Shown here: piece by piece, positions 8,380-58,813 of the stretch
Layout of the letters: every line of letters begins with the position of its first letter
How positions within the stretch are numbered: the stretch's first letter is position 1
Source: Pyrus communis
Taxonomy: Eukaryota > Streptophyta > Magnoliopsida > Rosales > Rosaceae
Direction: 5' to 3'
DNA: 64,000 nucleotides
Assembly (NCBI RefSeq): GCF_963583255.1
Contig: NC_084805.1
Coordinates: 7,308,827-7,372,826, forward strand
Translations under genes and position numbers: made by a program
The notes under the pieces: model-generated
Databases searched by the model: none
Seen by the model: only the letters and a program-made list of their open reading frames with translations
Told to the model about the DNA's origin: nothing

Positions 8380-10591
8380 TGACACACCCCGACCGAGATC
8401 GGAGCGTGCTGGCCGTCACACGAAGGTGACGTAGCCATGTGCACGTGCGGAAGCCAATAAAGTAATAATATAAAAGTACGAATAATAAAAAAACTAGCAC
8501 ACAAAGTACTAAACAAGTGCTAGCGTATGTGAAAGACAATTTCAGAGCAGGTCTACAGCAGTCCAAAAGAAAGTTGCGACATAAGTACACCCAAAGGTGA
8601 CCCTACGCTGGTGAGTATCTGTCAGAAAAGCCGGGAGAAATCCTCTGGGAAAACCACCGAAACTGCTGATCAACTAGAACCTGGAGGGGCGCAAAACAAA
8701 AGTGTGAGTGGGCAAAAACAAAGCTTTCGAAAACCATTTATAAAATACTTTCTAACCCCTCGCCGTAAAACCTGTATACTTCCCAGAAAATAAACATATA
8801 ACTGTATGTACAAATATGCCAAACATGCTCAAGATATGCCATGCCAAAGCCTCATAATGAATGTAAGTGCCCAGGTATAAATCATATCAATATCATAACC
8901 TCTGACAGCCGGAGTCACCTAACGTGACCTGTACGGCTGCATCTAGAGCTCAAATCTCAACTCAATAACTGAACCTGCCCACGAGTCGGAACCACTCAAA
9001 GTGGTCTGTACGACAGGCCTGGGTGTAACATATATATACGCTCTAGTGCTACGATCACGTGAAGGTTGTGCGAATCATCGCGGGTCACCTACGAGTCGGA
9101 ACCACCTAATGTGGTCTGTACGACAGGCCTATGCACCTAACTTGGATCCAAGCTGAGCGTGTGGTGCGGGAGGTGAACATCACGTGAAGGACTGTGCCCT
9201 ACTCTGGGCGGGAGCACTAACACCGGGGGTGCAGGTTATGAGCTCTCTAATCATCTCAAACCACTACTGAACTGTAAACATGCATACCTCTTACCTGGCA
9301 CTTACCTGTGCGTCCACGGCACCCAATACGCATATATAAATGTATGCCACTACTAATGCATGTGATGATGCATAAACGATAATAATAAAGTGCATGACAT
9401 AACATACATAATCCTTTTAATCAATTTCTGGGAATATAATTGTATATAGGTATATACGGAAAACAAAAGCCCACTCACTGGTAAGTGGAAGGGTCGTAGC
9501 CCCCCTGCCTCGAGTGCGAACGCTCGTCCTCGGGGTACGTGTCACCTATATGCGAAATAACTATAAAAACGTTAGTTTTAAAGCACATAACCAACTTCTC
9601 GTAATAACTTCTCATACATTGCTCAAAATGGACAATTGAATATACCAACGTGCTCTACACAACCTCAGGATCACAACCATATTTTTAGAATAATTTTCCT
9701 CCGCCGCACGCGCCCCCACGCGCCGGCCAAGGCACGGACCTACGCGCCCCCACGCGCGGCCACGTGCCATGCACACTGACGGTGTCAACTGACGCCGTCA
9801 GGAATATTCCGTTAAGATTTCGGAATATTCCGTTAAACTTAACCGGATACCGTTACTGCCGTTAGGAATATTTCGGAATTTTAACGGAATATTCCTGTTT
9901 CTTCTCCGGCCTACCCTCGCCGGACTCCGGTCACCGGAAAACTGGGAAAAATATAAACTCACTAATCTCCTTCGTTTTTCATCCATTTTTCACGTACCTT
10001 ATACCAAAATGAAGCCCTAAACATAATCTACCACGTTGGACTAGTTTTAGGGCCTAAAAACAACGGAATCAAACTTTCCAAAATATGAAAATTTGGCCAA
10101 ACTTACAGTTCGTGGTTCCGACGTCCAAATCCGTCCAACGATGCACTCCCAAGCTCCTTGGGACCTCACCAACACATCTACAAGCTTCAAAAGTCCAAAA
10201 ACTAACTAGATTAAGTTTGCATGAACAGTACCCAAGTCGGACCACTTCGAATCGACGTGAAAATGTTGGTTTTCTTACCTGAAAATAGTATGGACGTGCT
10301 CGCCTCGACCTCACGAGTTCAATGGTATGCTTCGTTCCCTTGATCTGCAAGGTTTGGTATGGTTATGTGTGTGTCCGTACAGTTTCAATGGAGAAGGGAG
10401 GAAGGGAGCACGGGAGAGACAGAGAGAGAAGACAGAAGGAGAGAGAGAGAGACAGTGTCTGTGTGTGGGAGTGTGTGTGGTCCAACACATGCCACACCAC
10501 ACAAAACAACCCATAACGTGACAAAAACGAACTAGGGGCAAAGTCGTAATTTCACACGTGCATTTCGATATTTCCGGGACGGGATGTCACA
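8380..10591 (-). repeat. 3' LTR of the Tekay-type element
   Basis: 2212 bp. It is nearly identical to the other LTR. The clearest difference is an extra segment of about 30 bp around 9720-9750 (a 'cgcgcccccacgcg' duplication) that is absent at 18670-18700. It contains two hairpin units of the GTCGGAACCAC...GTGGTctGTACGAC type. On the coding strand it is read from 10591 to 8380. Confidence 0.9.
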
Positions 10592-10606
10592 ACCTTCCCA
10601 CCTTAA
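10592..10606 (-). other. Polypurine tract of the Tekay-type element
   Basis: On the minus strand a purine-rich stretch (AAGGTGGGAAGGT) lies directly before the 3' LTR, the expected place for plus-strand DNA priming. Confidence 0.7.
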
Positions 10607-10647
10607 AAGAATTTCGTCCCGAAATTCAAAACAACCAAGTATAACCC

Positions 10648-12697
10648 CTAGTGGTCAAAGAACAATCGAGGATACAAATCCCTCATCCGATCTTCTGTCT
10701 CCCAAGTAGCTTCCTCGACTGAATGATTCCTCCACAAAACTTTTACTAAGTTCACCGTCTTATTCCTCAAAACCTTCTCTTTCCAATCGATGATCGTCAC
10801 TGGTTCCTCGTCATACGTCAAATCTAGGTTAATCTCTAACGGTTGAGGAGGTATCACGTGAGATGGATCAGCAATATAGTGTCGGAGCATAGACACGTGA
10901 AAAACATTATGCACTCTAGCCAACTCCGAAGGCAACTCCAACCTGTAAGCTACCTCACCAACTCGTTCTGTGACCATGTATGGTCCGATGTATCTGGGAC
11001 TCAACTTCCCCTTCTTTCCAAACCGTACGACACCTCTCCACGGTGAAAGCTTCAAAAATACCCAATCTCCGACGTCATACACTCTGTCCGTAGCATGCCA
11101 ATCCGCTAGACTCTTTTGCCTGTCCTGAGCTGCTTTCAGGTTAGACTTAATCACCTGAACATTCAGAGTAGTCTCCTCGACAATCTCTGGACCCACTAAA
11201 ACTCTTTCTCCAACCTCTGACCAACATAACGGTGTGCGACAAGCTCTGCCATATAAAACCTCAAATGGCGCCATGCCAATGCTCGAATGAAAACTGTTGT
11301 TGTAGGCAAATTCCATCAGATCTAACCGCTGGTGCCAAGCATCACCAAACTGCAACACCGAAGCTCGCAGCATATCCTCCAAGGTCTGAATAGTTCTCTC
11401 TGACTGTCCGTCTGTCTGTGGATGATACGCCGTACTGTAAAGTAATCTCGTGCCCAAAGCTTCCTGGAAAGCCACCCAAAACTTAGATGTGAATCGTGGA
11501 TCACGATCCGAGACAATACTCACTGGGACACCATGATACTTCACCACCTTCGAGATAAACAACTCCGCTAAACGGCTCAAAGAATACTTCTCTCTTACCG
11601 GAACAAAATGAGCCGACTTAGTGAGTCGATCAACGATCACCCAAATGCCGTCAAAGCCATTTTGTGTACGCGGCAACTTGTACACAAAATCCATGGTGAT
11701 ATTTTCCCATTTCCACTCTGGAACGGGAAGCGGCTGCAACAACCCAAACGGCTTCTTCCTCTCTGCTTTAACCTGCTGACACACAGCACACCTGCTCACA
11801 TACTCGGCTATCTCCCTCTTCATACCCGGCCAATAATAAAATGGTCGAATGGTATGATACATTTTTGTAGCTCCTGGATGCATGGCATAAGCCGAGATAT
11901 GTGCTTCATCGAGAATTTCTTTCTTCAACTCCACACTATTAGGCACGAACATTCTACCCTCTAGCATCAACATGTCATCCTAATCACGAACTCTGAGGTC
12001 TCGCCTCCTTCCTTGATTTCGAGCTTGGATTAGTTCCTGAGTCTCCTGATCAGCTACTTGGGCTTCAAGTACCCGATCAACAAGTATCGGCCCAACTTGA
12101 AAATTAGCAAGTAACGCCACTTCTCGATCTTCTGCTTCTAAACTCACTCCCGTAGCACGCAAGTCAGCCAAAAGAGGAACACGACTAGCGTACAACGTAT
12201 TAATGTGGCCCTGCGACTTCCTGCTAAGTGCATCAGCCACTACGTTCGCACGACCAGGATGATAATCAATCGTGCAATCGTAATCGCTGAGCAACTCCAA
12301 CCACCTCCGCTGACGAAGATTAAGTTCCTTCTGAGTAAAAAGATATTGGAGACTCTTGTGATCTGTAAAGATCCTGCACTTCTCTCCGTAAAGATAGTGT
12401 CTCCACAACCTCAACGCAAAGATGATAGCAGCCAACTCTAAATCATGTGTAGGGTAATTCAACTCATGAGGTTTCAACTGCCGCGAAACATAAGCAATCA
12501 CCCTACCATGCTGCATCAATACACATCTCAGACCATTCAAGGAAGCATCGCTATAAACCTCGAAATCACCACTATCGTCTGGGAGTGCCAAAACAGGTGC
12601 ATGAGTGAGACAATGCTTCAACTGCTGGAAACTCTGCTCACACCTATCATCCCACTCAAATTTAACATCCTTCCTCGTTAACCTCGTCAACGGCAAG
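10648..12697 (-). pseudogene. Tekay pol, 3' part: RNase H, integrase, chromodomain-like tail
   Basis: This continues the reading frame that the nested hAT interrupts. Removing the hAT plus one TSD copy (1797 bp, divisible by 3) restores frame with the RT part. It begins in the RT/RNase H linker and carries an RNase H domain (YSDAS, then FTDHKSL, then [14 protein letters not shown]). After a TAG at 11980-11982 it continues with an integrase: an H-H-C-C zinc finger with CAVC, a catalytic core with VIVDRLT, SDRDPRF and TDGQSER, and a GPY-type region. The C-terminus (LTYDEEPV, then VKVLWRN, then EEATWE) resembles the chromodomain of Tekay/Del chromoviruses. The single stop would separate RNase H from integrase unless suppressed. 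Confidence 0.85.
11980..11982 (-). other. In-frame amber codon between RNase H and integrase
   Basis: The codon is TAG on the minus strand. The frame continues on both sides without other damage (12697 down to 10648), so this is a point nonsense mutation or a suppressible stop. Confidence 0.8.
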
Positions 12698-13014
12698 GCA
12701 ATCACTAGGGCTGGAAAAAAATCCCAAAAATCCCAAACCAAACCGAAAAAATCCCGATCCCAAACCAAAAAAATCCCAAACCAAAATTCCCGAAAATTTC
12801 GGTATGTCATCCCGAACCAAACCGAAATTTTCGGTATGGGATTCGGTATTACATCTCCATTTTTTCGGTATTCCCATACCGAATAGAAATAAATATTATA
12901 TATATATATATATTATTTTTTAATTATAAGAGAATTATTTCAACCGTTCATTGTTTTAGATTTAATCTGTGCCGTTCATTTGTTTTTAGGTTAGATCCCA
13001 TTTCAATTTTCACT

Positions 13015-13327
13015 TCCGTAGCTTGAAGTTGAAACGCATCCATGAGCCACCAGCTTTCCTTCACCAGAAATCAGTGAATCACCACCACCCAGCTTCACAA
13101 ATCAACACCCAGCCACCGGCGCCACGCCAAAGCATCCTTCACGAACCATCTCCGACACGATTCCTTCACGAATCGTCTCCGACACGAATCGCTGGACAGA
13201 ACTCTCCAGCCTTCCTTCACGATTCCTTCACGAATCGTCTCCGACACGGCGACACTTGCGAGTTGCGATCTCTCTCTCTCTCGGGCAATTTTCCCTCACA
13301 GACAGAACTCTCAATCTAGAGGCGGAG
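13015..13327 (+). pseudogene. Captured leader-like exon in the nested hAT
   Basis: It is richer in GC than the surrounding DNA, with CT-rich stretches and a consensus splice donor (GGAG|GTAAGT) at 13327/13328. It resembles a 5' untranslated first exon. The open frame through it (13023-13319) is compositionally biased (His, Pro, Ser) and partly repetitive ('acgattccttcacgaatcgt' variants), so I do not call a protein. It probably belongs to the same captured gene as the SCAMP exon downstream. Confidence 0.45.
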
Positions 13328-13432
13328 GTAAGTCTTCCTCAATGATATTTGGTTATTACTTGATTGTAGGTAAACTTAGCTCCTCTGGCTATCACGCTAA
13401 TTGGATCTTCTGATGACTTTCATAAACTGCAG

Positions 13433-13526
13433 GTGTTAAAATATTTTTGCTTGCAACGATCTATGCTCTAATGGGATGCCCTCTTTCATATGTTCTTTGG
13501 TACAGGCCTCTCTATCGTGCAATGAG
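13433..13526 (+). pseudogene. Captured exon of a secretory carrier-associated membrane protein (SCAMP)
   Basis: A 94-bp exon is bounded by an acceptor (CTGCAG|GT) and a donor (ATGAG|GTAATT). In the second frame it encodes a hydrophobic stretch followed by [13 protein letters not shown]. The LWYRPLY core sits in the conserved membrane region of plant SCAMPs, four-helix proteins of the secretory and endocytic pathway. Only one coding exon is recognisable and neighbouring SCAMP exons are not seen, so this is a fragment. Identification rests on memory of the family motif. Confidence 0.7.
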
Positions 13527-14502
13527 GTAATTGTTTAAAGATGGCTTTGTTTCTAGTTTCCATGTAAATAAAAGATTGTAGTTCCTCTGGAAATTACAGA
13601 GAAGCCGCAATGTTAGCATAAATTTTTTGGCACTTTAGAGAAAATAGCTTGACTGTAATATCATGGATCTTAGGGTGGGATTGTTATATGGTGCATGACA
13701 TGGTGGTTGTGGTTGTGCTTCCTAAAAAACACTTTTCTTTTCTATAGGGATGGTGATGGAATGCCTTTACATGGGACCTTCATTTCTATGGAGTGCACTT
13801 AGATGGACTTTGATTTTCTTAGTGGAAGTTCTGTTTTGTTTTGAAGCATGAATCTGAGGAAGCATGTCTATTGATAATTTGACTGCCTGCGTTTTGCTTC
13901 AGGTTCCAAAATTTGGTGAACTAAAACAAGAGTATGGACGGTAATATTCTCGGAGGCATTGACAATAAGGTTGTTTCTTTGGAACCAAACCTCGTATTAG
14001 ATGTTTGTTTGCTGCTATGAACTCACTTTGTAATTTTTAAGCTAGAATCCTTGAATTTCTGCTGGAAATCTTGGGAGTGGGAGTTTAGGATATGCATGAT
14101 CTTTGGTGTACTGTAAATCTTCGTTGAATTAGTATAAGTCTAAACGACAAATTCCCCCTCATTCCTCTCTTCTTTCACTCACTTAACTAGCTCTGCTAGG
14201 TGACCGGAGACGGGATAGGTACAGATGAGCTCTGTGGAAGATAGGCAGGGGTAGAACTTTAAACAATGTCGGAATATCGTTTGAAGGGGAACACAATATT
14301 TTCTTATTTTCAAATTTTAGTCCAAAAGCCCAAAAACATTTCGGGATTCCCGATTTGTCCCGAAATCCCGAAATTATTTCGGGATTCCCGAAAATTTGGT
14401 TTGGGATTGGTATTGAATTTGGGATTCCCAAAAATTTCGGTTTGGGAATCGGGACAAGGGTTTCGGTATGGGATCCCATACCGAACCACCCCTAGCAATC
14501 AC

Positions 14503-15846
14503 CGAAAAATCCTTAACGAATCTCCGATAATACCCCGCCAAACCAAGGAAACTTCTTACCTCGGTGACGGTTCGCGGTTGCTCCCAACTCTCTACCGCTG
14601 CAACCTTCTGAGGGTCAACCAAAATACCCTGAGCAGAAATGACGTGCCCCAGAAACGCTACTTGGTCTAACCAGAACTGGCACTTGCTAAACTTAGCATA
14701 TAACTGGTGTTCCCTCAACCTCTTCAACACCAAAGTAAGATGTCGAACATGCTCCGCTTTGGACTTAGAATACACCAGAATATCGTCAATGAAGACAATA
14801 ACAAATCTATCCAAGTAAGGCTGGAACACCCGATTCATCAAATCCATGAAGGCGGCTGGTGCATTCGTCAACCCAAATGGCATAACCAGAAACTCGTAAT
14901 GACCGTAACGAGTCATGAACGCCGTCTTAGGGATATCATCCCTACTGATCATCAGCTGATAGTAACCAGACCTCAAGTCTATCTTAGAAAACACACAAGC
15001 ACCTCTCAACTGATCGAACAAATCATCGATACGAGGCAATGGATAACGGTTTTTAATCGTCACCCGATTCAATTGCCTGTAGTCGATGCACAGCCTCAAA
15101 GTTCCATCCTTCTTCCTCACAAACAGAACTGGAGCGCCCCAAGGCGAAGTACTAGGCTGAATAAATCCCTTATCCACTAACTCCTGCAACTGGACTTTCA
15201 ATTCCCTTAACTCCGCGGGAGCCATACGATAAGGAGTTAAAGAAATAGGATTAGTACCTGGAAGCAACTCAATAGTGAACTCCACGTCTCGATCTGGGGG
15301 TAGACCAGGTAAATCCTCGGGAAAAACATCAGGGAAATGTCTAACCACTCTCACATCCTCAACTCTGTTAGGAACAGCCTCATCTAGCACCACGTGAGCT
15401 AGGTACCCCTGACAACCTTTAGATAACAACTTTTTCGCTCGCAGCGCTGAAATAACGCCATGTCTCACCCCACTCTGCTCGCCCACGAAAGTAACCACAG
15501 GTAGTCCAGGTCGGTGAAATGTAACTACTTTCCCATAATAGTCAATGTTGGCACGGTAGAAGTGCAACCAATCCGTGCCCAGAATCACATCAAAGTCCAC
15601 AATATCTAACGGGATACGATCGGCTGACAAGGCAACACCCTCTACGATCACTGGACATCCAGGGTACACACAATCTACAACACAACTCTCTCCTCTAGGC
15701 ATAGTAAACTCTAAATCATACCCTAGAGGTGTGGGGCGAGGTTGCGTCACTTGAGCAAATGTATGAGAAATTACGGAATGTGTAGCTCCACAATCAATTA
15801 AGACTCTAGCAAAACAACCAAGAATGTTCAACGTACCCATAATCAA
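14503..15846 (-). pseudogene. Tekay pol, 5' part: protease and reverse transcriptase
   Basis: The frame begins near the protease and is continuous with the gag frame upstream apart from one TAG. The protease active site is [11 protein letters not shown] near residue 18 of this part. The RT follows: a [21 protein letters not shown] block, [34 protein letters not shown], and the catalytic [11 protein letters not shown] (the FxDD form usual in gypsy elements). It ends in the thumb/connection region ([12 protein letters not shown]), where the nested hAT cuts the frame. I see no frameshift in this part. Confidence 0.9.
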
Positions 15847-15978
15847 GTCTGGGTTGTTCTGAGCGTCCTGCAGAGAAATATTGTGAAGACGCCCCTGGCC
15901 CTGCTGACGTCCGCCGCGGCCTCTGCTCGCCTGAACGCCGCGTCCCTGAGCACCACGCCCCTGACTGGGCTGACCCGA

Positions 15979-15981
15979 CTA
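15979..15981 (-). other. In-frame amber codon at the gag-pol boundary
   Basis: The TAG codon follows AGA and precedes TCG on the minus strand. The same frame runs on for 45 codons (Gly/Gln/Arg-rich) into the protease ORF at 15846. No frameshift is needed to fuse Gag to Pol. Confidence 0.85.
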
Positions 15982-17262
15982 TCTCGAAGACCCTGCACTG
16001 CTAGTGGCAATCTCCCCCTGCTGATACTGTCCTCCCTGATACCACTGAGAACCACCCGCTGGAGCTGGAGGATACGGCATATAGCCGCCTGAATACTGGG
16101 GATAGCCACCCTGAGAATAGGGATCCTGAGGGTGCTGATACTGCCCCGGAGCATAAGGGACAGCATCACCCTGATAGTGGTAAGCACAACCTCGACCCGT
16201 CTGGCCGTAGCTACTAGTACCCTGGATCTGCTGGAGCGGTGCAGGTGGTGGCATAAAGGTCTGCTGCGGTTTCTGCTGCTGCTGACCCTGGGGACAATTC
16301 GCCGCTCTATGTCCCATCTGTCCACACGTGAAGCAACCACTGCTACCACGTCTACACTCGCCGAAATGCCGGTTGTTACACCTACGGCAAACTGGGGCTC
16401 TGCCTCGCCCACCATCGCCCTGCCTCTGGCCTCTAGCGCCACCAGAAAATCTACCTCCACGACCCTGTCCAGTGGCACTGAAACCACCACTCGAAGAACT
16501 AGAACTAGCTCCACCTCTCTTGAAGTTCTGAGTCTGACGGGGCCCGAGCGATGCCTGACCTTTACCTTTTTCATCTTTCTTCTGATTGCCGTCTTTCTCT
16601 TCATCAGTGTCGCTCGACATATTCTCAGAGTCCTCGATTCTCAACAGTATCTCATAGAAGTCCTGGTAAGTCTCGCTGTGGACAGTAGTCGCCATAGAAC
16701 GCCACTTCTTCCTGGTGCCCAAACGGAAAAGACGAAGCATCTCCGCCGGATTACCAGCGACATCAGGATGGTAACGAGACAAGTCCGTAAACTTGCGGTA
16801 GTACTCATTCGCCGACATCTTCCGCTGTTTTAACTCGGTAAACTCTTGCTTCTTTCTATCGATGTACTCAGGGGGCACATATCTCCTCTTGAACAAATCC
16901 GTAAAAACATTCCAATCCGTCCTCTGATCTGGAGTCAACCTACGAAGCTCCTGCTCCCACCAAGCTGCAGACTCCGTATCCAGAAACCATGAGGTCGTCT
17001 CGACCCACCTCTCCATAGGAAGGTTCCCCTGATTATGCAGCACACGGAAAGTCTTCTCTACGTGTTCTAGCCAGCGCTCTGCGCCCTCATGCCCCTCACT
17101 GCCCTTAAACTTATCCAACTTCAGATTGTACATAGTCTCCAGATGAGTCATCTGGGGAGGGCGCAACACAGACTGAAGGGCTGTAGCAAAAACTTCCCCC
17201 AACTGAGTAACATCGGGGAAGCTAGACTCAGAAAAACGACGTGGTTCCCGACGAGGAGGCAT
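15979..17262 (-). CDS. Tekay-type Gag (capsid and nucleocapsid)
   Basis: Gag packages element RNA into cytoplasmic virus-like particles. I start it at the ATG encoding MPPRREPRR at 17262, because the frame upstream of it is leader sequence also found in the element at 57956. The Retrotrans_gag core includes ERWLEHVEKTFRV, WFLDTESAAWWEQEL and the YYRKFTDLSRYHP region. A nucleocapsid CCHC knuckle (CFTCGQMGHRAANC) follows an Arg/Gly-rich stretch, and a Gln/Tyr/Pro-rich tail ends at a TAG at 15979-15981. About 427 residues. The frame beyond the TAG is the same as pol. Confidence 0.88.
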   Translation of the reverse strand: MPPRREPRRFSESSFPDVTQLGEVFATALQSVLRPPQMTHLETMYNLKLDKFKGSEGHEGAERWLEHVEKTFRVLHNQGNLPMERWVETTSWFLDTESAAWWEQELRRLTPDQRTDWNVFTDLFKRRYVPPEYIDRKKQEFTELKQRKMSANEYYRKFTDLSRYHPDVAGNPAEMLRLFRLGTRKKWRSMATTVHSETYQDFYEILLRIEDSENMSSDTDEEKDGNQKKDEKGKGQASLGPRQTQNFKRGGASSSSSSGGFSATGQGRGGRFSGGARGQRQGDGGRGRAPVCRRCNNRHFGECRRGSSGCFTCGQMGHRAANCPQGQQQQKPQQTFMPPPAPLQQIQGTSSYGQTGRGCAYHYQGDAVPYAPGQYQHPQDPYSQGGYPQYSGGYMPYPPAPAGGSQWYQGGQYQQGEIATSSAGSSR

Positions 17263-17324
17263 AATTCTGACAGAAGACACCAAAACCATTAGAATACTCA
17301 CAAGGACACAGGACTGCCAAACCT

Positions 17325-17339
17325 AAGCTCTGATACCAA
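17325..17339 (-). other. Primer-binding site, initiator tRNA-Met type
   Basis: On the minus strand TTTGGTATCAGAGC follows the LTR end (GTGTGTCA) after one base. TGGTATCAGAGC is the standard complement of plant initiator tRNA-Met used by many LTR elements. Confidence 0.9.
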
Positions 17340-17341
17340 AC

Positions 17342-19523
17342 TGACACACCCCGACCGAGATCGGAGCGTGCTGGCCGTCACACGAAGGTGACGTAGCCAT
17401 GTGCACGTGCGGAAGCCAATAAAGTAATAATATAAAAGTACGAATAATAAAAAAAAAAAAAGCATACAAAGTACTAAACAAGTGCTAGCGTAAGTGAAAG
17501 ACAATTTCAGAGCAGGTATACAGCAGTCCAAAAGAAAGTTGCGACATAAGTACACCCAAAGGTGACCCTACGCTGGTGAGTATCTGTCAGAAAAGCCGGG
17601 AGAAATCCTCTGGGAAAACCACCGAAACTGCTGATCAACTAGAACCTGGAGGGGCGCAAAACAAAAGCGTAAGTGGGCAAAAACAAAGCTTTCGAAAACC
17701 ATTTATAAAATACTTTCTAACCCCTCGCCGTAAAACATGTATACTTCCCAGAAAATAAACATATAACTGTATGTACAAATATGCCAAACATGCTCAAGAT
17801 ATGCCATGCCAAATCCTCATAATGAATGTAAGTGCCCAGGTATAAATCATATCAATATCATAACCTCTGACAGCTGGAGTCACCTAACGTGACCTGTACG
17901 GCTGCATCTAGAGCTCAAATCTCAACTCAATAACTGAACCTGCCCACGAGTCGGAACCACTCAAAGTGGTCTGTACGACAGGCCTGGGTGTAACATATAT
18001 ATACGCTCTAGTGCTACGATCACGTGAAGGTTGTGCGAATAATCGCGGGTCACCTACGAGTCGGAACCACCTAATGTGGTTTGTACGACAGGCCTATGCA
18101 CCTAACTTGGATCCAAGCTGAGCGTGTGGTGCGGGAGGTGAACATCACGTAAAGGACTGTGCCCTACTCTGGGCGGGAGCACTAACACCGGGGGTGCAGG
18201 TTATGAGCTCTCTAATCATCTCAAACCACTACTGAACTGTAAACATGCATACCTCTTACCTGGCACTTACCTGTGCGTCCACGGCACCCAATACGCATAT
18301 ATAAATGTATGCCACTACTAATGCATGTGATGATGCATAAACGATAATAATAAAGTGCATGGCATAACATACATAACCCTTTTAATCAATTTCTGGGAAT
18401 ATAATTGTATATAGGTATATACGGAAAACAAAAGCCCACTCACTGGTAAGTGGAAGGGTCGTAGCCCCCCTGCCTCGTGTGCGAACGCTCGTCCTCGGGG
18501 TACGTGTCACCTATATGCGAAATAACTATAAAAACGTTAACTTTAAAGCACATAACCAACTTCTCGTAATAACTTCTCATACATTGCTCAAAATGGACAA
18601 TTGAATATACCAACGTGCTCTACACAACCTCAGGATCACAACCATATTTTTAGAATAATTTTCCTCCGCCGCACGCGCCCCCACGCGCGGCCACGTGCCA
18701 TGCACACTGACGGTGTCAACTGACGCCGTCAGGAATATTCCGTTAAAATTCCGGAATATTCCGTTAAACTTAACCGGATACCGTTACTGCCGTTAGGAAT
18801 ATTTCGGAATTTTAACAGAATATTCCTGTTTCTTCTCCGGCCTACCCTCGCCGGACTCCGGTCACCGGAAAACTGGGAAAAATATAAACTCACTAATCTC
18901 CTTCGTTTTTCATCCATTTTCACGTACCTTATACCAAAATGAAGCCCTAAACATAATCTACCACGTTGGACTAGTTTTAGGGCCTAAAAACAACGGCATC
19001 AAACTTTCCAAAATATGAAAATTCGGCCAAACTTACAGTTCGTGGTTCCGACGTCCAAATCCGTCCAACGATGCACTCCCAAGCTCCTTGGGACCTCACC
19101 AACACATCTACAAGCTTCAAAAGTCCAAAAACTAACTAGATTAAGTTTGCATGAACAGTACCCAAGTCGGACCACTTCGAATCGACGTGAAAATGTTGGT
19201 TTTCTTACCTGAAAATAGTATGGACGTGCTCGCCTCGACCTCACGAGTTCAATGGTATGCTTCGTTCCCTTGATCTGCAAGGTTTGGTATGGTTATGTGT
19301 GTGTCCGTACAGTTTCAATGGAGAAGGGAGGAAGGGAGCACGGGAGAGACAGAGAGAGAAGACAGAAGGAGAGAGAGAGAGAGACAGTGTCTGTGTGTGG
19401 GAGTGTGTGTGGTCCAACACATGCCACACCACACAAAACAACCCATAACGTGACAAAAACGAACTAGGGGCAAAGTCGTAATTTCACACGTGCATTTCGA
19501 TATTTCAGAGACGGGATGTCACA
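17342..19523 (-). repeat. 5' LTR of the Tekay-type element
   Basis: 2182 bp, TG...CA ends, followed by the TSD TATAT at 19524. It should contain the promoter for minus-strand transcription of gag-pol. It is very similar to 8380-10591. Confidence 0.9.
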
Positions 19524-19528
19524 TATAT

Positions 19529-22414
19529 GCTTTGAGAGCACATCACCAAAAAATCGCAAAAAACAAACATTTAGAGATCAAGTAACATGACAAAGCTTTT
19601 CGACGGTTATAAATGAAAAATCACGATTTAACGGTTATTTTAACTTCGATTTTGATGATTTTTTATAGCTACACTCCTTGACCCTATATGAATACAATGA
19701 ATGAATTCGATCTTCAATTTAAAATATTTACACAAGTGGATACCGCAAAATCTTATGTTATACTTGATGAAAGTATAAATAAACTCTAAGTGTTAGTTAA
19801 TCTATTGTTTTTATGGGATACGAATTCTCTTAAACTAATTTCAACGATCTCAACCGTCAAACTTGTTTGTATATGCTTTGAGATCACATCAGCAAAAAAT
19901 CACAAAAAACAAACATTCAGAGATCAAGTAACGGGACAAAGCTTTTCGACGGTTATAAACGAAAAATCACGATCTAACGGTTATTTTAACTCAGATTTTG
20001 ATGATTTTTTACAGCTACACTCCTTGACCCTACATGAATACCATGAACGAATTCGATCTTCAATTTCAAATATTTACACAAGTGGATACCACAAAATCTT
20101 ATTTTTTACTTAATGAAAGTATAAATAAACTCTAAGTGTTAGTCAATCTATCGTTTGGGTGGGATACGAATTCTCCAAAACTAATTTCAACGATCCAAAC
20201 CGTCAAACTTGTTTGTATATGCTTGGAGATCACATCAGCAAAAAATCACAAAAAACAAACATTCAGAGATCAAGTAACAGGACAAAGCTTTTCGACGGTT
20301 ATAAACAAAAAATCACAATTTAACGGTTATTTTCACTCTGATTTTGATGATTTTTTACAGCTACACTCCTTGACCCTATATGAATACAATGAATGAATTC
20401 GATCTTCAATTTAAAATATTTACACAAGTGGATACCACAAAAATTTATGTTATACTTAATGAAAGTATAAATAAACTCTAAGTGGTAGTCAATCTATCGT
20501 TTTGATGGGATACGAATTCTCCAAAACTAATTTCAATGATCTAAACCGTCAAACTTGTTTGTATATGCTTGGAGATCACATCAGCAAAAAATCACAAAAA
20601 ACAAACATTCAGACATCAAGTAACGGGACAAAGCTTTTCGACGGTTATACACGAAAAATCACGATTTAACGGTTATTTTAACTTCGATTTTGATGATTTT
20701 TTAAAGCTACACTCCTTGACCCTATATGAATACAATGAGTGAATTCGATCTTCAATTTAAAATATTTACACAAGTGGATACCACAAAATCTTATGTTATA
20801 CTTAATGAAAGTATAAATAAACTCTTAAGTGTTAATCAATCTATCATTTTGATGGGATACGAATTCTCCAAAACTAATTTCAACGATCCAAACCGTCAAA
20901 CTTGTTTGTATATGCTTGGAGATCAAATCAACAAAAAATCACAAAAAACAAACATTCAAAGATCAAGTAACGGGACAAAGCTTTTCGACGATTATAAACA
21001 AAAAATCACGATTTAACGGTTATTTTAAATCCGATTTTGATCATTTTTTACAGGTACACTCCTTGACCCTATATGAATACAATGAATGAATTCGATCTTC
21101 AATTTAAAATATTTACACAAGTGGATACCACAAAATTTTATGTTATACTTAATGAAAGTATAAATAAACTCCAAGTGTTAGTCAATCTATCGTTTTGTTG
21201 GGATACGAATTCTCCAAAACTAATTTCAACGATCCAAACCATCAAACTTATTTGTATATACTTGGAGATCACATCAACAAAAAATCACAAAAAACAAACA
21301 TTTAGAGATCAAGTAACGGGACAAAGCTTTTCGACGGTTAAAAACAAAAAATCACGATTTAACGGTTATTTTAACTCTGGTTTTGATGATTTTTTACAGC
21401 TACACTCTTTGACCCTATATGAATACAATGAATGAATTCGATCTTCAATTTAAAATATTTACACAAGTGGATACCACAAAATCTTATGTTATACTTAATG
21501 AAAGTATAAATAAACTCTTAAGTGTTAGTCAATCTATCGTTTTGATGGGATACAAATTCTCCAAAACTAATTTCAAAGATCTAAACCGTCAAACTTGTTT
21601 GTATATGCTTGGAGATCACATCAGCAAAAAATCACAAAAAACAAACATTCAGAGATCAAGTAACGGGACAAAGCTTTTCGACGGTTATAAACGAAAAATC
21701 ATGATTTAACGGTTATTTTAACTCCGATTTTGATGATTTTTTACAGCTACACTCTTTGACCCTATATGAATACAATGAATGAATTTGATCTTCAATTTAA
21801 AATATTTACACAAGTGGATACCACAAAATCTTATGTTATACTTAATGAAAGTATAAATAAACTCTTAAGTGTTAGTCAATCTATCGTTTTGATGGGATAC
21901 GAATTCTCCAAAACTAATTTCAACGATCCAAACCGTCAAATATGTTTGTATATGCTTGGAGATCACATTAACAAAAAATCACAAAAAACAAACATTCAGA
22001 GATCAAGTAACGGGACAAAGCTTTTCGACGGTTATAAACGAAAAATCACGATTTAACGGTTATTTTAACTCCGATTTTGATGATTTTTCACAGCTACACT
22101 CCTTGACCCTATATGAATACAATGAATGAATTTGATCTTTAATTTAAAATATTTACACAAGTGGATACCACAAAATCTTATGTTATACTTAATGAAAGTA
22201 TAAATAAACTCTAAGTGTTAGTCAATCTATCGTTTTGTTGGGATACGAATTCTCCAAAACTAATTTCAACGATCCAAACCGTCAAACTTGTTTGTATATG
22301 CTTGGAGATCACATCAACAAAAAATCACAAAAAACAAACATTCAGAGATCAAGTAACGGGACAAAGCCTTTCGACGGTTATATACGAAAAATCACGATTT
22401 AACGGTTATTTTAA
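19529..22414. repeat. 346/347-bp tandem repeat array (core of the hAT element)
   Basis: Unit starts (GGGATACGAATTCTC) lie at 19815, 20161, 20507, 20854, 21200, 21547, 21894 and 22240, with spacing 346, 346, 347, 346, 347, 347 and 346. With the unit split by the gypsy insertion (8319-8379 plus 19529-19814) there are eight full units and a last one cut at about 22414. Units differ by scattered substitutions. Open frames of about 96 codons recur in several units, but the period is not a multiple of three and substitutions are not codon-biased, so these are not proteins. Confidence 0.92.
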
Positions 22415-22895
22415 TATATTTTTATATGGTATAGTATTATTATTTTATTTCTTTTCATAATTATTTTGGTAAACTTCTCATAATTTGAATGATTTTTAAT
22501 GTTTGGTTTTTCTATACTTAGTTTATGCGGAAGAGAGTTTTGACGTGGAAAACCTTACTGAAAACATCTTCAACATAACTCTTCAAGGCAATAGATCAAA
22601 CCAAAGTTTCAATACAATTTCATGATGATCGATGTAAATTGAAGATTTTGTAGATAGAGGTGTAAACTTTTGAGAAAGACTTACAATCTTGAAAACAAAA
22701 ACTCTTTCATTTTGCATATCCTTGCACATTTAATATTTGTAATAGATTAGTAGTGTATGTATTATTTTTTTTATTAGGCTCTTATTTTCGAGTGTAGATA
22801 TAGTACTTAAACGATAAATGTTTTAATGTTTTGAAGTAATATTTATGTGGCAATGTGTGGTATGTGCAAATTAAAAAAAAAATATATATTTTTCT

Positions 22896-30380: not shown

Positions 30381-31407
30381 TGTTTGGGCCCAAAATGACA
30401 ATTTGGGCCGAGAGTAACAAAATGACAATTTGGGCCGAGAGTAACAAAATGGGTTGAGATTCTTGGTCCAGCGATCTTCCGGGGGGTATCATGGGCCGGT
30501 TAGGCACTGGGAGTTGTCTAGTCGGCTTCGATTGAGTCCTTTTGCGAGAATGATGGATTTGGATAAAGGTGAAGGTTGAATCCCTGTACCAACATGGGTG
30601 TTAAAGCTGAAGGCACTGTGAGTCAAGGAATGAATCTGGTTCATTATGAAGGTGGGTTCAAAGTCCCAGTTGAATTAGGATTTGCCGATTCCTAGTTAGA
30701 TTAGGATAAAGAGTCCTAATCCGAGTGTGGTTCTAACTCGGCCAGAAGTGGTTTCACTGCTATAAATAGAAAAAGGAGTGCATCATTCGAGCCCTCCAAT
30801 TCAACACACAAACTGCCCTGCGCAAACTCTCGCTCTACGCGAAACCTCTCAACAACCTTAAGATGTTTATTTTCTTTTTTCCGACAACACATCTTCAGTT
30901 TGGATAAACAACACTGTGATGGCAACCGGTGACATCTTTAGTTTGGATAAACAGCACTATTGCCGTAGAATCAACCGACCGCGGAGCACCTTCAGTTTGG
31001 ATATACAGCATTGCGTCGAGGTCGACTGGTTGTCTATCCAAGTCTCGGTCGAGAAGGATTTTCGAATCCTTATTGGCAGAGGTCAACTCATTAGCCTTCT
31101 CAGCGAAGTGAAGTGTTACAGGTTACTACATTCGGCACATTGAAAGCCGAATTTGATATTGAACTTCGCAGAACTAGCAGCCTTGTCTTCAAGCTTTAGA
31201 CTCGAAGACCTAGACGTGTTCCTTCCTCGACTGCAGTCGCAAGATCAAGAAGTCAGCAGCCCGCCCAATGCCACATCAACATATTTTACTCCCCGGCCGA
31301 ACTCGACCAACGAGTTGGCACGCCCTGCACACAACTGAATGACGTAGTTATCTTATTAATTACTCGGCTTGCGCGCCACGTAGGCTTGGAAGTTTTTAGG
31401 GTCAACA
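30381..31407 (+). repeat. 5' LTR of the Tat-lineage element
   Basis: 1027 bp, collinear with 45152-46145 but visibly diverged by substitutions and small indels, so the insertion is older than the Tekay element. A CTATAAATAG TATA box lies near 30760, with the matching GTTATAAATAG near 45501 in the other LTR. Confidence 0.88.
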
Positions 31408-31409
31408 TT

Positions 31410-45151: not shown

Positions 45152-46145
45152 TGTTTGGGCCCAAAATGAGAATTTGGGCTAAGAGTAACAAAATGGGCTG
45201 AGACTCTTGGTTCGGCGGTCTTCCGGGGGTATCATAGGCCAGCTAGGCACCAGGAGTTGTCTAGTCGGCTTCGGTCGAGTCATTTTGCAAGAAGGATGGA
45301 TTTGGATAAAGGCGAAGGTTGAATCCTTGTACCACCAGAGGTGTTAAAGCTGAAGGCACTGTGAGTCAGGGAATGAATCTGGTTCATATGAAGGTGGGTT
45401 CAAAGTCCTAGTTGAATTAGGATTTGCTTAGTCCTAGTTAGATCAGGATAAGGAGTCCTAATCCAAGTGTGGTTCTAACTCAGCCAGGACTAGTTTCATT
45501 GTTATAAATAGAAGAGTGAGTGCATCATTCGAGCCCTCAAATTCAACACACAAACTGCCCTGCTCAAACTCTCGCTCTACGCGAAACCTCTTAACAACCT
45601 TGAGATTTTTTTTTTTTCCGCCAACACATCTTCAGTTTGGTTAAACAACACTGTGACGGCAACTGGTGACATTTTCAGTTTGGATAAACAGCACTGTTGC
45701 CGTAGAATCAGCCGACCGCGGAGTACCTTCAGTTTGGATAAATATCACTGTGTCGAGGTCAACTGGTTATTTATCCAAGTCTTGGTCGAGAAGGATTTTC
45801 AAATCCTTATTGGTAGAGGTCATCTCATTAGCCTTCTCGGTGAAGTGAAGTGTTACAGGTTACTACATTCGGCACATTGAAAGCCCAATTGGATATTGAA
45901 CTTCGCAGAACTAGCAGCCTTGTCTTCAAGCTCTAGAACCCGAAGGCCGAGAAGTGTTCCTTCCTCGGTCGCAGTCTCAAGATCAAGAAGTTAGCAGAGC
46001 ACCCAACGCCACATCAACAAATTTTACTCCCCGGGCGAACTCGGCCGATGAGTTGGCATACCCCGCACACAATTGAAGGACGTAGTTAGCTTATTAATTA
46101 CTAGGTTTGCGCACCACGTTGGATTGGTAGTTTTTAGGGTCAACA
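45152..46145 (+). repeat. 3' LTR of the Tat-lineage element
   Basis: 994 bp, begins TGTTTGGGCCCAAAATGAG, ends GGGTCAACA. It is preceded by a purine-rich tract (AGAAGCGAGGAGGTAG). It aligns along its length to 30381-31407 with many differences. Confidence 0.88.
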
Positions 46146-47360
46146 TGGACTAAAAAAATAATCATATTTTCGAATCTTTAGTTGATATATATAGGCAATG
46201 AATGAGACATGCATCCATTAATTTCTTGAAGACTAATGCAAGGGATACAAAATTTTGTAAACTGTATGATGTGATTGTTGATGATTAGATTATTACTTAA
46301 GTGCTGATTAACGTATTTATTTCTTATTAGTGACACGTTGTATGGTTTGCAAATTTGGTCTATGCATTACTCTTTGTTGAAGGTTATATTTGAATTGGAA
46401 TGAATATCTAAAAATTGCACCCCACATAGCTACTAGCTAGCAATTAAAAAGAAATTAACAACCAAACAAAAATTGCTAAAAATTAGAAAGAAAAAAAAAA
46501 AAAAAAAAGCACATAGCATTTCAAACTTAAGTCATAGGATTGATTTCTAGCAAGAAAACGGGTGTTAATAATGGAGAATCGCAAACAAATTCTGGAGAGG
46601 GCAAGAGGACTCACCGTGAATTCAAAGTTGCTTGAAGAATTTTCTTCAAATCGGGACAGGATCCGCGTCAGGTCGTCATCGTTGACAAAGAGAGTACGAA
46701 ATCTTCTTCGATATTGAGACCTTACAAAATCTTGGTGTCAGGTATGTCGTTGACCGAGTGCTTCTTGACCTCAAACTATAGATGGGAACCACCAAGGAGT
46801 TCGATGTTCTATTTGGCTAAGAATTTAGAGCTTTAGAGAGAAAGATATGCAAGAAAGTTAAAGTAGATGGAGTTGACGAAGGGTAGCTAAATCAGAGTTG
46901 GACGATAACGGCTAATGGAGAACGAAGGGTTTCTGGGAGATGAACAATAGAGAAGAAAGGAGATAGAATAAACGAAACCAAAACCACATAACCCAAAACA
47001 AACGAAGTCAAATTACAGGAAAATAAGTGAAAACCAACCGAAGGAAAAACAGTGAAAAGAAAGGGAATATGCTAGAAGACACTGCGATGGTCGATAAGGC
47101 AAAAACGCCTTTTCACTGTAGAGAAGCCAAAACAAAAGCCAGCCAGAATAACATTGTAAGGGCATTTTCACCATTTTACTGTCCATGAACAGTACACCCG
47201 AGTTTGGGTCTTAGTATAGGAATAATGTCTAAAAGAAGAGCATGGTGCTAGAAGACATCAACGACTGCTATGACTTCAATGAGGTAAATGGTTTTACTCT
47301 TATTATCCTAAACCCCACCCGCAACCGGAACTAAGAAGAGACGTTAGCATAGGAGTTCAA
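46146..47360. other. Intergenic DNA, no gene recognised
   Basis: It includes a poly(A) run at about 46490. A GA-rich stretch at 46560-47060 has no open frame of note. I see nothing identifiable. Confidence 0.45.
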
Positions 47361-57400: not shown

Positions 57401-57670
57401 ATAAAGAATTGCATAATGTACCAAAGTAATATTTTCTAACGTACCAAAATAATACTAATATGTACCCAAATTAAATTTATATAATGTACCAATACGTACC
57501 AAATGATTGGTACGTTATATTTAATATATGTGCATGTTATATCTCATAATTGTATTTTAATAGGATATTTGATGTATTTTTAGAATTAAAAAAAAATTTG
57601 TTTGAGTTAAAAAATTTTATTTTCAAACGAATTATGATAGGATAAGATGAGATGTTTGTAGTGGCTTTAG
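54420..57670. other. Intergenic DNA upstream of SOT copy 2
   Basis: AT-rich, no gene recognised. A 31-bp phrase (TTATGCATTTCACTCTGCCC...) is tandemly duplicated at about 54992-55052. A degenerate array of 'gtaccaa(a/t)' phrases occupies about 57330-57515. Confidence 0.5.
57330..57515. repeat. Degenerate GTACCAA-type short repeats
   Basis: About ten copies of TACCAA or GTACCAAA(T/A)AA-type phrases at irregular spacing, with no element ends recognised. Confidence 0.55.
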
Positions 57671-57955
57671 TGTGACATCCCACATCGCCCAGGGGTGATC
57701 CTTAAATGTATATTCCCATCCCTACCTAGCACGAGGCCTTTTGGGAGCTCACTGGCTTCGGGTTCCATGGGAACTCCAAAGTTAAGCGAGTAGCGCGCGA
57801 GAGCATTCCCAGGATGGGTGACCCATCGGGAAGTTCTCGTGTGAGTTCCCAGAAACAAAACTGTGAGGGCGTGGTTGAGGCCCAAAGCGGACAATATCGT
57901 GCTACGGTGGTGGAGCGGGCTCGGGAAGTGGTGCCCCCCGGGTCGGGATGTGACA
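57671..57955 (+). repeat. Cassandra-type LTR with 5S-rRNA-like segment
   Basis: 285 bp, starts TGTGACATCCCACATCG, ends GGGTCGGGATGTGACA. Its middle is a 5S-rRNA-like segment. This matches the Cassandra group of TRIM elements, known for 5S-derived promoters in their LTRs. It is followed immediately by a tRNA-Met primer-binding site. No second Cassandra LTR is present downstream. Confidence 0.88.
57725..57850 (+). promoter_or_regulatory. 5S-rRNA-like segment (internal Pol III promoter) in the Cassandra LTR
   Basis: AACTCCAAAGTTAAGCGAG resembles the A-box region of plant 5S rRNA, and GGATGGGTGACCCATCGGGA resembles the C-box region, at about the same spacing as in 5S genes. The 5' third diverges from true 5S RNA, so it is element-borne and not a ribosomal gene. 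Confidence 0.85.
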
Positions 57956-58813
57956 ATTTGGTATCAGAGCCAGGTTTGGCAGTCCTGTGTCCTTGTGAGT
58001 ATTCTAATGGTTTTGGTGTCTTCTGTCAGAATTATGCCGCCTCGTCGGGAACCACGTCGTTCTTCTGAGTCTAGCTTCCCCGATGTTGCTCAGTTGGGGG
58101 AAGTTATTGCTACAGCCCTTCAGTCTGTGATGCGCCCTCCCCAGAGGACTCCTCTGGAGACTATGTACAATCTGAAATTGGATAAGTTCAAAGATAGTGA
58201 GGGTCACGAGGGCGCAGAGCGATGGTTAGAGCACATTGAGAAGACTTTCCGTGTGTTGCACAATCAGGGGAACCTTCCTATGGAGAGGTGGGTCGAGACG
58301 ACCTCATGGTTTCTGGATACGGAGTCTGCAGCTTGGTGGGAGCAGGAGCTTCGTAGGTTGACTCCAGCTCAGAGGACTGATTGGAATGTTTTTACGGATT
58401 TGTTCAAGATGAGGTATGTGCCCCCTGAGTACATTGATCGGAAGAAGCAGGAGTTCACCGAACTGAAACAGCGGAAGATGACGGCTAATGAGTACTATCG
58501 CAAGTTTACTGATCTATCCCGCTACCATCCTGACGTTGCTGGTAATCCAGCAGAGATGCTCCGTCGTTTCCGTTTGGGCACCAGGAAGAGGTGGCGTTCT
58601 ATGGCGACTACTACTCACTGTGAGTCCTACCAGGATTTCTACGAGATATTGTTGAGGATTGAGGACTCAGAGAATATGTCGAGCGACAGTGATGAGGAAG
58701 AAAAAGGTGGCAATCAGAAGAAAGATGACAAGGGTAAAAGTCAAGCATCGCTCGGGCCTCGCCAGACTCAGAACTTCAAGAGGGGTGTGTCAGTTTGTGA
58801 TATTAACATGTGA
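57956..58813 (+). pseudogene. Tekay-type leader and truncated gag joined to the Cassandra LTR
   Basis: The leader (57959-58033) and the gag from ATG 58034 (MPPRREPRRSSES) are nearly the same as those of the Tekay element at 17262. The capsid core is intact (ERWLEHIEKTFRV, WFLDTESAAWWEQEL, RWRSMATT). The frame follows the Tekay gag to QTQNFKRG, then departs at about 58786 and stops at 58811-58813 after a few unrelated residues. The nucleocapsid knuckle and all of pol are missing. It could have arisen by template switching between co-packaged RNAs. It cannot supply a complete Gag. Confidence 0.82.
57959..57971 (+). other. Primer-binding site, initiator tRNA-Met type
   Basis: TGGTATCAGAGCC starts three bases after the Cassandra LTR. 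It is identical in its first twelve bases to the site of the Tekay-type element at 17325-17339. Confidence 0.88.

What the first reader, a model, noticed from the sequence alone, without database searches (positions are those of the whole stretch)
57671..58813. Cassandra LTR joined at the primer-binding site to a Tekay-type gag
Cassandra TRIMs carry a 5S-like promoter and no coding genes, and the element that mobilises them has been an open question. Here a full Cassandra LTR is followed at the tRNA-Met site by a leader and gag nearly identical to those of the Tekay-type element elsewhere in this window. Both LTR types begin TGTGACATCCC on their coding strands and use the same primer site. The simplest reading is template switching in a shared particle, which makes this Tekay family a candidate helper for Cassandra. 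The alternative is an autonomous 'large Cassandra' lineage.
Basis: partly seen in the sequence, partly recalled or inferred. Interest (0 to 1): 0.88.

Follow-up and report, generated by a model that had tools for sequence, protein, structure and literature searches.

The report
Cassandra–Tekay retrotransposon chimeras, shared particle
A small gene-less plant retrotransposon (Cassandra) is joined at the replication primer site to a large protein-coding one (Tekay-like), here and at about thirty places in this genome, in ways best explained if both were copied together in one particle, which points to a candidate for the element that moves Cassandra.

Summary
Window 57671-57955 is a Cassandra LTR joined at the tRNA-iMet primer site to the leader and gag of a chromovirus ("Tekay-type", here Tek) that also lies complete at 8380-19523. 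It is not a one-off: 9 loci have Cassandra(-like) LTR-PBS-Tek leader and 22 have Tek U5-PBS-Cassandra internal region, 30 distinct loci in all. Flanks of 19 units could be compared, the window copy included. Eleven have a perfect 5-bp target-site duplication, 4 match at 4/5 and 4 (window, L046, L049, L059) do not match; swapped-flank control, 2 of 240 perfect and 30 of 240 at 4/5. So at least eleven inserted as one chimeric molecule, two of them with one end from each parent. Marks of reverse transcription: ten units with an inverted, foldback Tek U5; a captured 56-nt piece of tRNA-iMet; a head-to-head unit holding the two reciprocal recombinants. A Tek-PPT/Cassandra-LTR junction was not found (0 of 21 hits), so a "large Cassandra" is not supported. 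Best reading: Cassandra and this Tek clade are reverse-transcribed in one particle, and one integrase accepts both kinds of end. The clade is the strongest helper candidate. Dependence on it is inferred.

The parts
57671..57955 (+). Cassandra LTR, TG...CA
   Evidence: sequence; 87-90% identity to the LTRs of L009, L011, L013
57741..57853 (+). 5S rRNA-like core of the Cassandra LTR (Pol III promoter type; function not tested)
   Evidence: Rfam RF00001, 29.4 bits, E 3.8e-4, below gathering score
57956..57977 (+). spacer and tRNA-iMet primer-binding site; from 57959, 19 nt are complementary to the mature tRNA-iMet 3' end, against 12 nt in the Tek element of this window
   Evidence: 3 tRNA genes fetched, all called tRNA-Met(CAT)
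57978..58787 (+). Tek-type leader and N-terminal part of gag (ATG at 58034), truncated
   Evidence: Pfam Retrotrans_gag E 4.8e-14; genome matches
58782..58792 (+). Tek U5 tip GGGGTGTGTCA forming the 3' edge of the truncated unit, followed by GTTTG
   Evidence: reading as an LTR tip is inference
8380..19523 (-). complete Tek-type element of this window, target-site duplication TATAT, interrupted by a DNA transposon-like insert
17342..19523 (-). 5' LTR of that Tek element (about 2.2 kb)
8380..10591 (-). 3' LTR of that Tek element (97% to the 5' LTR)
15979..17322 (-). gag (Retrotrans_gag, CCHC knuckle)
14497..15975 (-). protease and reverse transcriptase (RVP_2, RVT_1)
11983..12714 (-). RNase H
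10651..11979 (-). integrase (H2C2 and SH3_Tf2-1 above, rve and chromo matches below Pfam cut-offs)

Best explanation
The window copy is a cDNA recombinant between Cassandra RNA and a Tek-type chromovirus RNA that were reverse-transcribed in one particle. Shown from sequence: the junction lies at spacer+PBS; both reciprocal kinds of junction exist at many loci; at least eleven such units are flanked by a perfect 5-bp target-site duplication. Inferred steps: (1) both RNAs, primed by tRNA-iMet, occupy one Tek particle; (2) plus-strand strong-stop DNA of one element makes the second strand transfer onto the minus strand of the other through the PBS, giving CassandraLTR-PBS-Tek or TekLTR-PBS-Cassandra; (3) sometimes the Tek minus-strand strong-stop first folds back and primes itself, giving an inverted-U5 end; (4) Tek integrase inserts these molecules, because both families share TGTGACATCCC starts and similar ...TG(A/T)CA ends. 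The simplest consequence is that Tek-type particles carry and mobilise Cassandra.
For: Four of the 40 places scored carry LTR+gag together. Target-site duplications: Cass-int-Cass-PBS-Tek-TekLTR on C2 (TTTCT/TTTCT) and TekLTR-Cass int-CassLTR on C10 (ATTTA/ATTTA), each with one end from each parent; TekLTR-Cass int-CassLTR-PBS-Tek-TekLTR on C6 (AAAAG/AAAAG); head-to-head pair of reciprocal recombinants on C13 (TTTTA/TTTTA). Of 19 units compared, 11 perfect and 4 at 4/5; swapped flanks (16 units) 2 of 240 perfect. Ten units begin with an inverted Tek U5 tip that folds back, with several different turning points. tRNA-iMet nucleotides 1-56 lie between Tek U5 and inverted Cassandra in L081. The window PBS matches the tRNA 3' end for 19 nt, and this junction form occurs once in the genome at up to 1 mismatch. 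Two Cassandras carry Tek-like tips on both LTRs (L045, L065). Tek PPT joined to Cassandra LTR: 0 of 21 hits.
Against: Four of 19 units do not match: the window copy itself (TTTAG/GTTTG, 3/5; a GTTTG lies 12 bases before the LTR), L046 (2/5), L049 (2/5), L059 (1/5). Matches of 4/5 are weak: 30 of 240 swapped pairs reach that. The patterns asked for PBS junctions, so 'at the PBS' is partly built in; L078 also has a jump inside gag. Many Cassandras have a PBS reading GAGCCA (292 places with a non-T there, most of the 100 listed reading GAGCCA), so the window's tRNA-like PBS may simply come from such a Cassandra. No packaging signal is shared: beyond the PBS 64 of 500 shuffles score as high, LTR bodies 79 of 200. 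A second, related LTR family is also joined to Cassandra (L040, L067). Rare chimeras show co-packaging, not that most Cassandra copies were made this way.
Confidence: 0.8

Rival explanations
1. Post-integration DNA recombination (unequal exchange, gene conversion or capture of an extrachromosomal one-LTR circle) between Cassandra and Tek copies through the short shared PBS.
For: Shared PBS of up to 17 bp; tandem Cassandra arrays in this genome show that recombination or concatenation is common. Could explain the C6 unit taken alone, and units without matching flanks (window, L046, L049, L059).
Against: Units with one Tek end and one Cassandra end carry matching target-site duplications (C2, C10). 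Foldback U5 ends and captured tRNA have no natural place in DNA recombination.
Confidence: 0.08
2. Cassandra and Tek do meet in one particle, but by promiscuous packaging; the main helper of Cassandra is another family.
For: No shared packaging sequence. tRNA is also captured. A second LTR family joins Cassandra (L040, L067). The census has blind spots: 982 GACA-ended and 216 short-spacer junctions were not read one by one. Copy numbers of other families were not measured.
Against: Of 36 exact PBS-Cassandra-internal junctions not ending GACA, all read, 13 are Tek or the related family, 23 Cassandra itself, none unrelated. Shared LTR tips and PBS.
Confidence: 0.3
3. An autonomous 'large Cassandra' lineage with two Cassandra LTRs around gag-pol.
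For: Cassandra LTR precedes gag-pol at three loci read in full.
Against: Those three units end in a Tek 3' LTR; Tek PPT-Cassandra LTR 0 of 21 hits at up to 3 mismatches.
Confidence: 0.02

Closest known systems
Cassandra TRIM (5S-bearing)
   Same: LTR with 5S-like core, about 70-bp internal region, tRNA-iMet PBS, tandem arrays
   Different: here its LTR is joined to gag; PMC7215508 calls the autonomous partner unknown (passage)
Tekay/Del-type chromovirus (Ty3-gypsy)
   Same: gag, CCHC, protease, RT, RNase H, integrase and chromo-like tail; long LTRs; iMet PBS
Template-switching complexes of Triticeae, rice and maize (Sabot and Schulman 2007, PMC1950507)
   Same: fused elements inserted with one target-site duplication, explained by co-packaged RNAs
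   Different: those join close relatives through R; here LTR bodies are unrelated, the junction is at the PBS, one parent is a 5S-bearing TRIM and some ends are foldbacks
TRIMs with putative autonomous partners (Gao 2016, PMC4717578)
   Same: search for the helper of a TRIM
   Different: those rest on LTR/internal similarity; in the section and passages read no partner for Cassandra is named
BARE2 and VejuL (named in PMC1950507)
   Same: chimeras thought to form from two packaged RNAs
   Different: not 5S-bearing TRIMs (recalled)

Membership tests
Cassandra TRIM | 5S rRNA-like sequence in the LTR | tested here: met
   E 3.8e-4 in 451 bases, below the gathering score; L081 E 5e-4; L079 found, but L078, L080, L082 and L013 not found at E 0.1 in one 13-kb search, although L013 is 88-90% identical to the window LTR
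Cassandra TRIM | short non-coding internal region with PBS and PPT between two LTRs | tested here: not met
   the window copy has one LTR and gag instead; intact Cassandra structure is present in L013. The copy is a chimera, not a Cassandra
Tekay-type chromovirus | gag-PR-RT-RH-IN order | tested here: met
   (element 8380-19523)
Tekay-type chromovirus | chromodomain at the integrase C-terminus | tested here: inconclusive
   PF00385 E 1.3e-4, 22.2 bits, below its 25.1 cut-off
Tekay-type chromovirus | RT phylogeny within Tekay | not tested
   no reference set used
Template-switch (reverse-transcription) chimera | one target-site duplication around the whole chimeric unit | tested here: met
   11 of 19 perfect, 4 of 19 at 4/5, 4 of 19 no match; the window copy is among the last four
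Template-switch (reverse-transcription) chimera | junction at a strand-transfer site | tested here: met
   spacer+PBS, though the patterns asked for it; the PPT side gave none; L078 has a further jump in gag
Autonomous large Cassandra | two Cassandra LTRs around gag-pol | tested here: not met
   0 of 21 hits
Helper of Cassandra | trans-mobilisation of Cassandra RNA by the Tek proteins | not testable with these tools
   needs experiment

The most novel reading that the evidence does not exclude
Tekay-type chromoviruses with TGTGACATCCC...TG(A/T)CA ends are the natural helpers of Cassandra across plants: the 5S-promoted RNA enters Tek particles, is copied by Tek reverse transcriptase and inserted by Tek integrase. 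Their strong-stop DNAs swap at the PBS, and self-primed U5 hairpins are an accepted integrase end.
Probability: 0.5. Interest if true: 0.9.

Novelty: new variant of a known kind. Interest (0 to 1): 0.8.

Why it matters
Cassandra is widespread in vascular plants and its autonomous partners are called unknown (PMC7215508, passages). No partner is named in the passages seen of PMC10853983, PMC4717578 and PMC10886601, nor in the listings of searches. The chimeras give a testable candidate and a cheap genomic assay (PBS junctions with a target-site duplication) that can be run in any plant assembly for any TRIM. They also preserve what look like reverse-transcription intermediates: foldback strong-stops, captured primer tRNA and reciprocal second-strand transfer.

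Tried and rejected
Large Cassandra: rejected. One-off fragment or assembly artefact: rejected. Shared packaging leader: no similarity beyond the PBS. 3' ends of the Cassandra-Tek units at C13:13.1 Mb, C3:10.5 Mb and C9:21.8 Mb, and the 5' end of L077, were not found where expected, so their duplications are untested; so are those of L040, L047, L052, L054, L055, L067, L075, L078 and L081, whose ends I could not define. ARAGORN does not call the incomplete tRNA in L081; its identity rests on an exact 39-base match to 12 places (itself included), of which 3 others were fetched and called tRNA-Met. The first duplication table failed; one search printed it, then stopped on a later line, finished. 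The length note for L013/14 was a placeholder and is wrong; the span is about 7.7 kb. L049, L059 and the window copy were not in that table; one search adds them. L057 stays unclassified. Three of 10 places and 3 of 38 were not read. Searches not made: Cassandra PPT joined to Tek LTR; Tek copy number. No literature hit for foldback strong-stops with the terms. Yin et al. 2014 on pear Cassandra and Maiwald 2021 are not held; a report of such chimeras there cannot be excluded.

Full report
What is in the window. 57671-57955 is a Cassandra LTR with a 5S-like core at 57741-57853 (E 3.8e-4, below Rfam's gathering score; the gathering search of the window lists nothing). It is followed by one spacer base, TT, and the primer site TGGTATCAGAGCC (57959 on), then a leader and gag that match the Tek-type element on the minus strand of the same window (57941-58787 against 17356-16512, 90.4%). 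That element spans 8380-19523 with target-site duplication TATAT and LTRs of about 2.2 kb. It encodes gag with a CCHC knuckle, protease, reverse transcriptase, RNase H and integrase, with a sub-threshold chromo match. Gag homology of the chimera stops at 58787, and the 3' edge 58782-58792 is GGGGTGTGTCA, like the Tek U5 tip, followed by GTTTG. Hits lay on sequences C1-C17; a pear-like plant would fit, but that is inference.

It is a recurrent kind of junction. With the 1143-base stretch as query, 40 of 4806 candidates were scored and 4 of 40 carry LTR and gag together: the window, C13:8734294, C6:29002705 and C2:20538285. A pattern for Cassandra U5-PBS-Tek leader gave 10 places. Seven were read: six have a Cassandra LTR (C6, C13:8.7, C13:13.1, C9, C2:32.2 and C3:10.5 Mb) and one (L078) a Cassandra-like TRIM whose internal region matches Cassandra at 85%; three with a GTGTCA end were not read. 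With the window and C2:20.5 Mb that makes 9 loci. A pattern for Tek U5-PBS-Cassandra internal gave 38 places. I read 35: 23 places (22 loci, since L043 and L053 overlap) have Tek U5; 2 (L040, L067) have a second LTR with a related U5 end; 9 are Cassandra; 1 (L057) is unclear; 3 were not read. In the 22 loci the last 40 bases before the PBS align better to Tek U5 than to Cassandra U5 (scores 15-40 against 7-11; weakest L055, L044, L059). In 20 of them all or part of a Cassandra LTR follows (not in L054; inverted piece only in L076). The C6 locus is in both sets, so there are 30 distinct loci.

Many chimeras inserted as units. The five bases outside each end match perfectly for L041, L043, L060, L062, L063, L076, L013/14, L011/12, L009/10, L068/71 and L048/73 (11 of 19); 4 of 5 for L042, L044, L056 and L069/72; 3 of 5 for the window copy; 2 of 5 for L046 and L049; 1 of 5 for L059. 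Pairing left and right flanks of different loci (16 units) gives 2 perfect and 30 at 4/5 in 240, so only the perfect ones count, and some of these are low in complexity (TTTTT, ATTTT). The most telling units have one end from each parent: C2 (CassLTR-int-CassLTR-PBS-Tek gag-pol-TekLTR, TTTCT/TTTCT) and C10 (TekLTR-PBS-Cassandra internal-CassLTR, about 2.6 kb, ATTTA/ATTTA; about 0.5 kb inside the Tek LTR was not fetched). C6 is TekLTR-PBS-Cassandra internal-CassLTR-PBS-Tek gag-pol-TekLTR (AAAAG/AAAAG). C13:8.73 Mb is head-to-head: inverted TekLTR-PBS-Cassandra internal-CassLTR, then CassLTR-PBS-Tek internal-TekLTR (with an extra insert in the Tek part), the whole flanked by TTTTA. A duplicated copy of the target about 1.2 kb upstream lacks this unit, though a lone Cassandra LTR sits next to it. 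The two halves have the structure of the two reciprocal products of one exchange. C13:7.73 Mb (L048/L070/L073) looks like the same plan with an LTR-less second half, but the 6.5 kb between L070 and L073 were not fetched.

Marks of reverse transcription. (a) Junctions lie at spacer+PBS. The patterns asked for this; the only other boundary searched, PPT/LTR, gave none, and L078 shows a further jump from gag into a TRIM LTR. The spacer base is G in Tek and mostly A in Cassandra (97 of the 100 listed read A), and chimeras show either, as a heteroduplex there would allow. (b) The window's PBS matches the tRNA-iMet 3' end for 19 bases, the Tek PBS of the window for 12, and this junction occurs once. 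That is what strong-stop DNA copied from the primer would leave. Against it, many Cassandras read GAGCCA at this place, so it may be plain Cassandra sequence. (c) Ten units start with the Tek U5 tip inverted, turn back, and read out through U5 and PBS into Cassandra; nine are 66-102 bases from tip to PBS, and L060 is much longer. The turning point differs: after GTGAC, after GTGACGTAAC, at GTAACCATG, at an earlier CACG (L044), and far upstream in L060. The Tek minus-strand start folds into a hairpin with a GTCAC/GTGAC stem (-16 kcal/mol, z -2.2). Self-priming is inferred. (d) L081 carries Tek U5-PBS running into tRNA-iMet nucleotides 1-56, then inverted Cassandra, then Cassandra U5-PBS-Tek leader (tRNA genes). 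(e) L045 and L065 are Cassandras whose two LTRs both end in Tek-like GGGGTGTGTC, so such exchanges may be carried on by later cycles.

How specific is it? Exact matches to CA-N-TTTGGTATCAGAGCCTAACCCTGG number 982 for GACA (not read one by one), 19 for GTCA, 13 for [ACT][AT]CA and 4 for [CG]CA. All 36 non-GACA junctions were read: 11 Tek, 2 the related second family, 23 Cassandra itself (two of these inverted pieces, L085 and L086). None came from an unrelated LTR family. Blind spots: LTRs that end GACA, mutated sites, other spacers. A further 216 junctions have a two-base spacer; 6 lay in sequence on hand and all 6 are Cassandra. Copy numbers of Tek and of unrelated iMet-primed families were not measured, so enrichment is not quantified.

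Against the rivals. A large autonomous Cassandra needs Tek PPT next to a Cassandra LTR: 0 of 21 hits at up to 3 mismatches, all carrying Cassandra-type PPTs. DNA recombination would not give matching duplications on two-parent units, foldbacks or tRNA. What stays open is whether Tek is the main helper or one of several carriers: no packaging signal is shared, only LTR tips and PBS.

Literature. PMC1950507 was read whole; of PMC4717578 section 18 and passages; of PMC10853983, PMC7215508, PMC10886601, PMC11899658 and PMC4668562 passages only. PMC7215508 speaks of '(unknown) autonomous retrotransposon partners'. PMC1950507 is the precedent for target-site-duplicated template-switch complexes. PMC4668562 lists one Tekay family of 214 copies in pear and Cassandra as its most numerous family. 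No paper naming a partner for Cassandra was seen in the listings of searches, but two central papers are not held.

Verdict. The junction belongs to a set of about thirty loci best explained as reverse-transcription recombinants, and it makes the Tek clade the leading helper candidate for Cassandra. The window copy itself is the weaker witness, because its own duplication is not clear. Strand-transfer details are inferred; helper dependence is not shown.

Noticed in passing
window 12698-14502: A DNA transposon-like insert (about 12706-14494, ends TAGGGCTGG.../...CCACCCCTA) with 8-bp duplication GCAATCAC interrupts the Tek pol region; looks hAT-like (inference).
   Followed up: partly
window 19524-22511: Tandem array of a 346-bp unit starts exactly at the outer edge of the Tek 5' LTR.
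   Followed up: no
window 30418-31408 and 45162-46146: Pair of 89% alike repeats 14.7 kb apart, possibly LTRs of another element with a different primer site.
   Followed up: no
window 57654-57658 and 58793-58797: GTTTG lies on both sides of the chimera, but with 12 extra bases before the Cassandra LTR; perhaps a target-site duplication with filler.
   Followed up: partly
L045, L065, L050, L051, L058, L061, L074: L045 and L065 are Cassandras with a Tek-like tip on both LTRs; the other five carry GATGTGTCA at the LTR next to the PBS (in L051 and L074 on both LTRs).
   Followed up: partly
L040, L067: A second LTR family with a related U5 end joined to Cassandra internal regions.
   Followed up: no
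L078: Tandem Cassandra-like TRIM without a 5S match at E 0.1, set between Tek gag and Tek leader.
   Followed up: partly
L076: Unit with a Tek U5 foldback at one end and inverted Tek U5 plus inverted Cassandra U3 at the other, duplication ATATT.
   Followed up: partly
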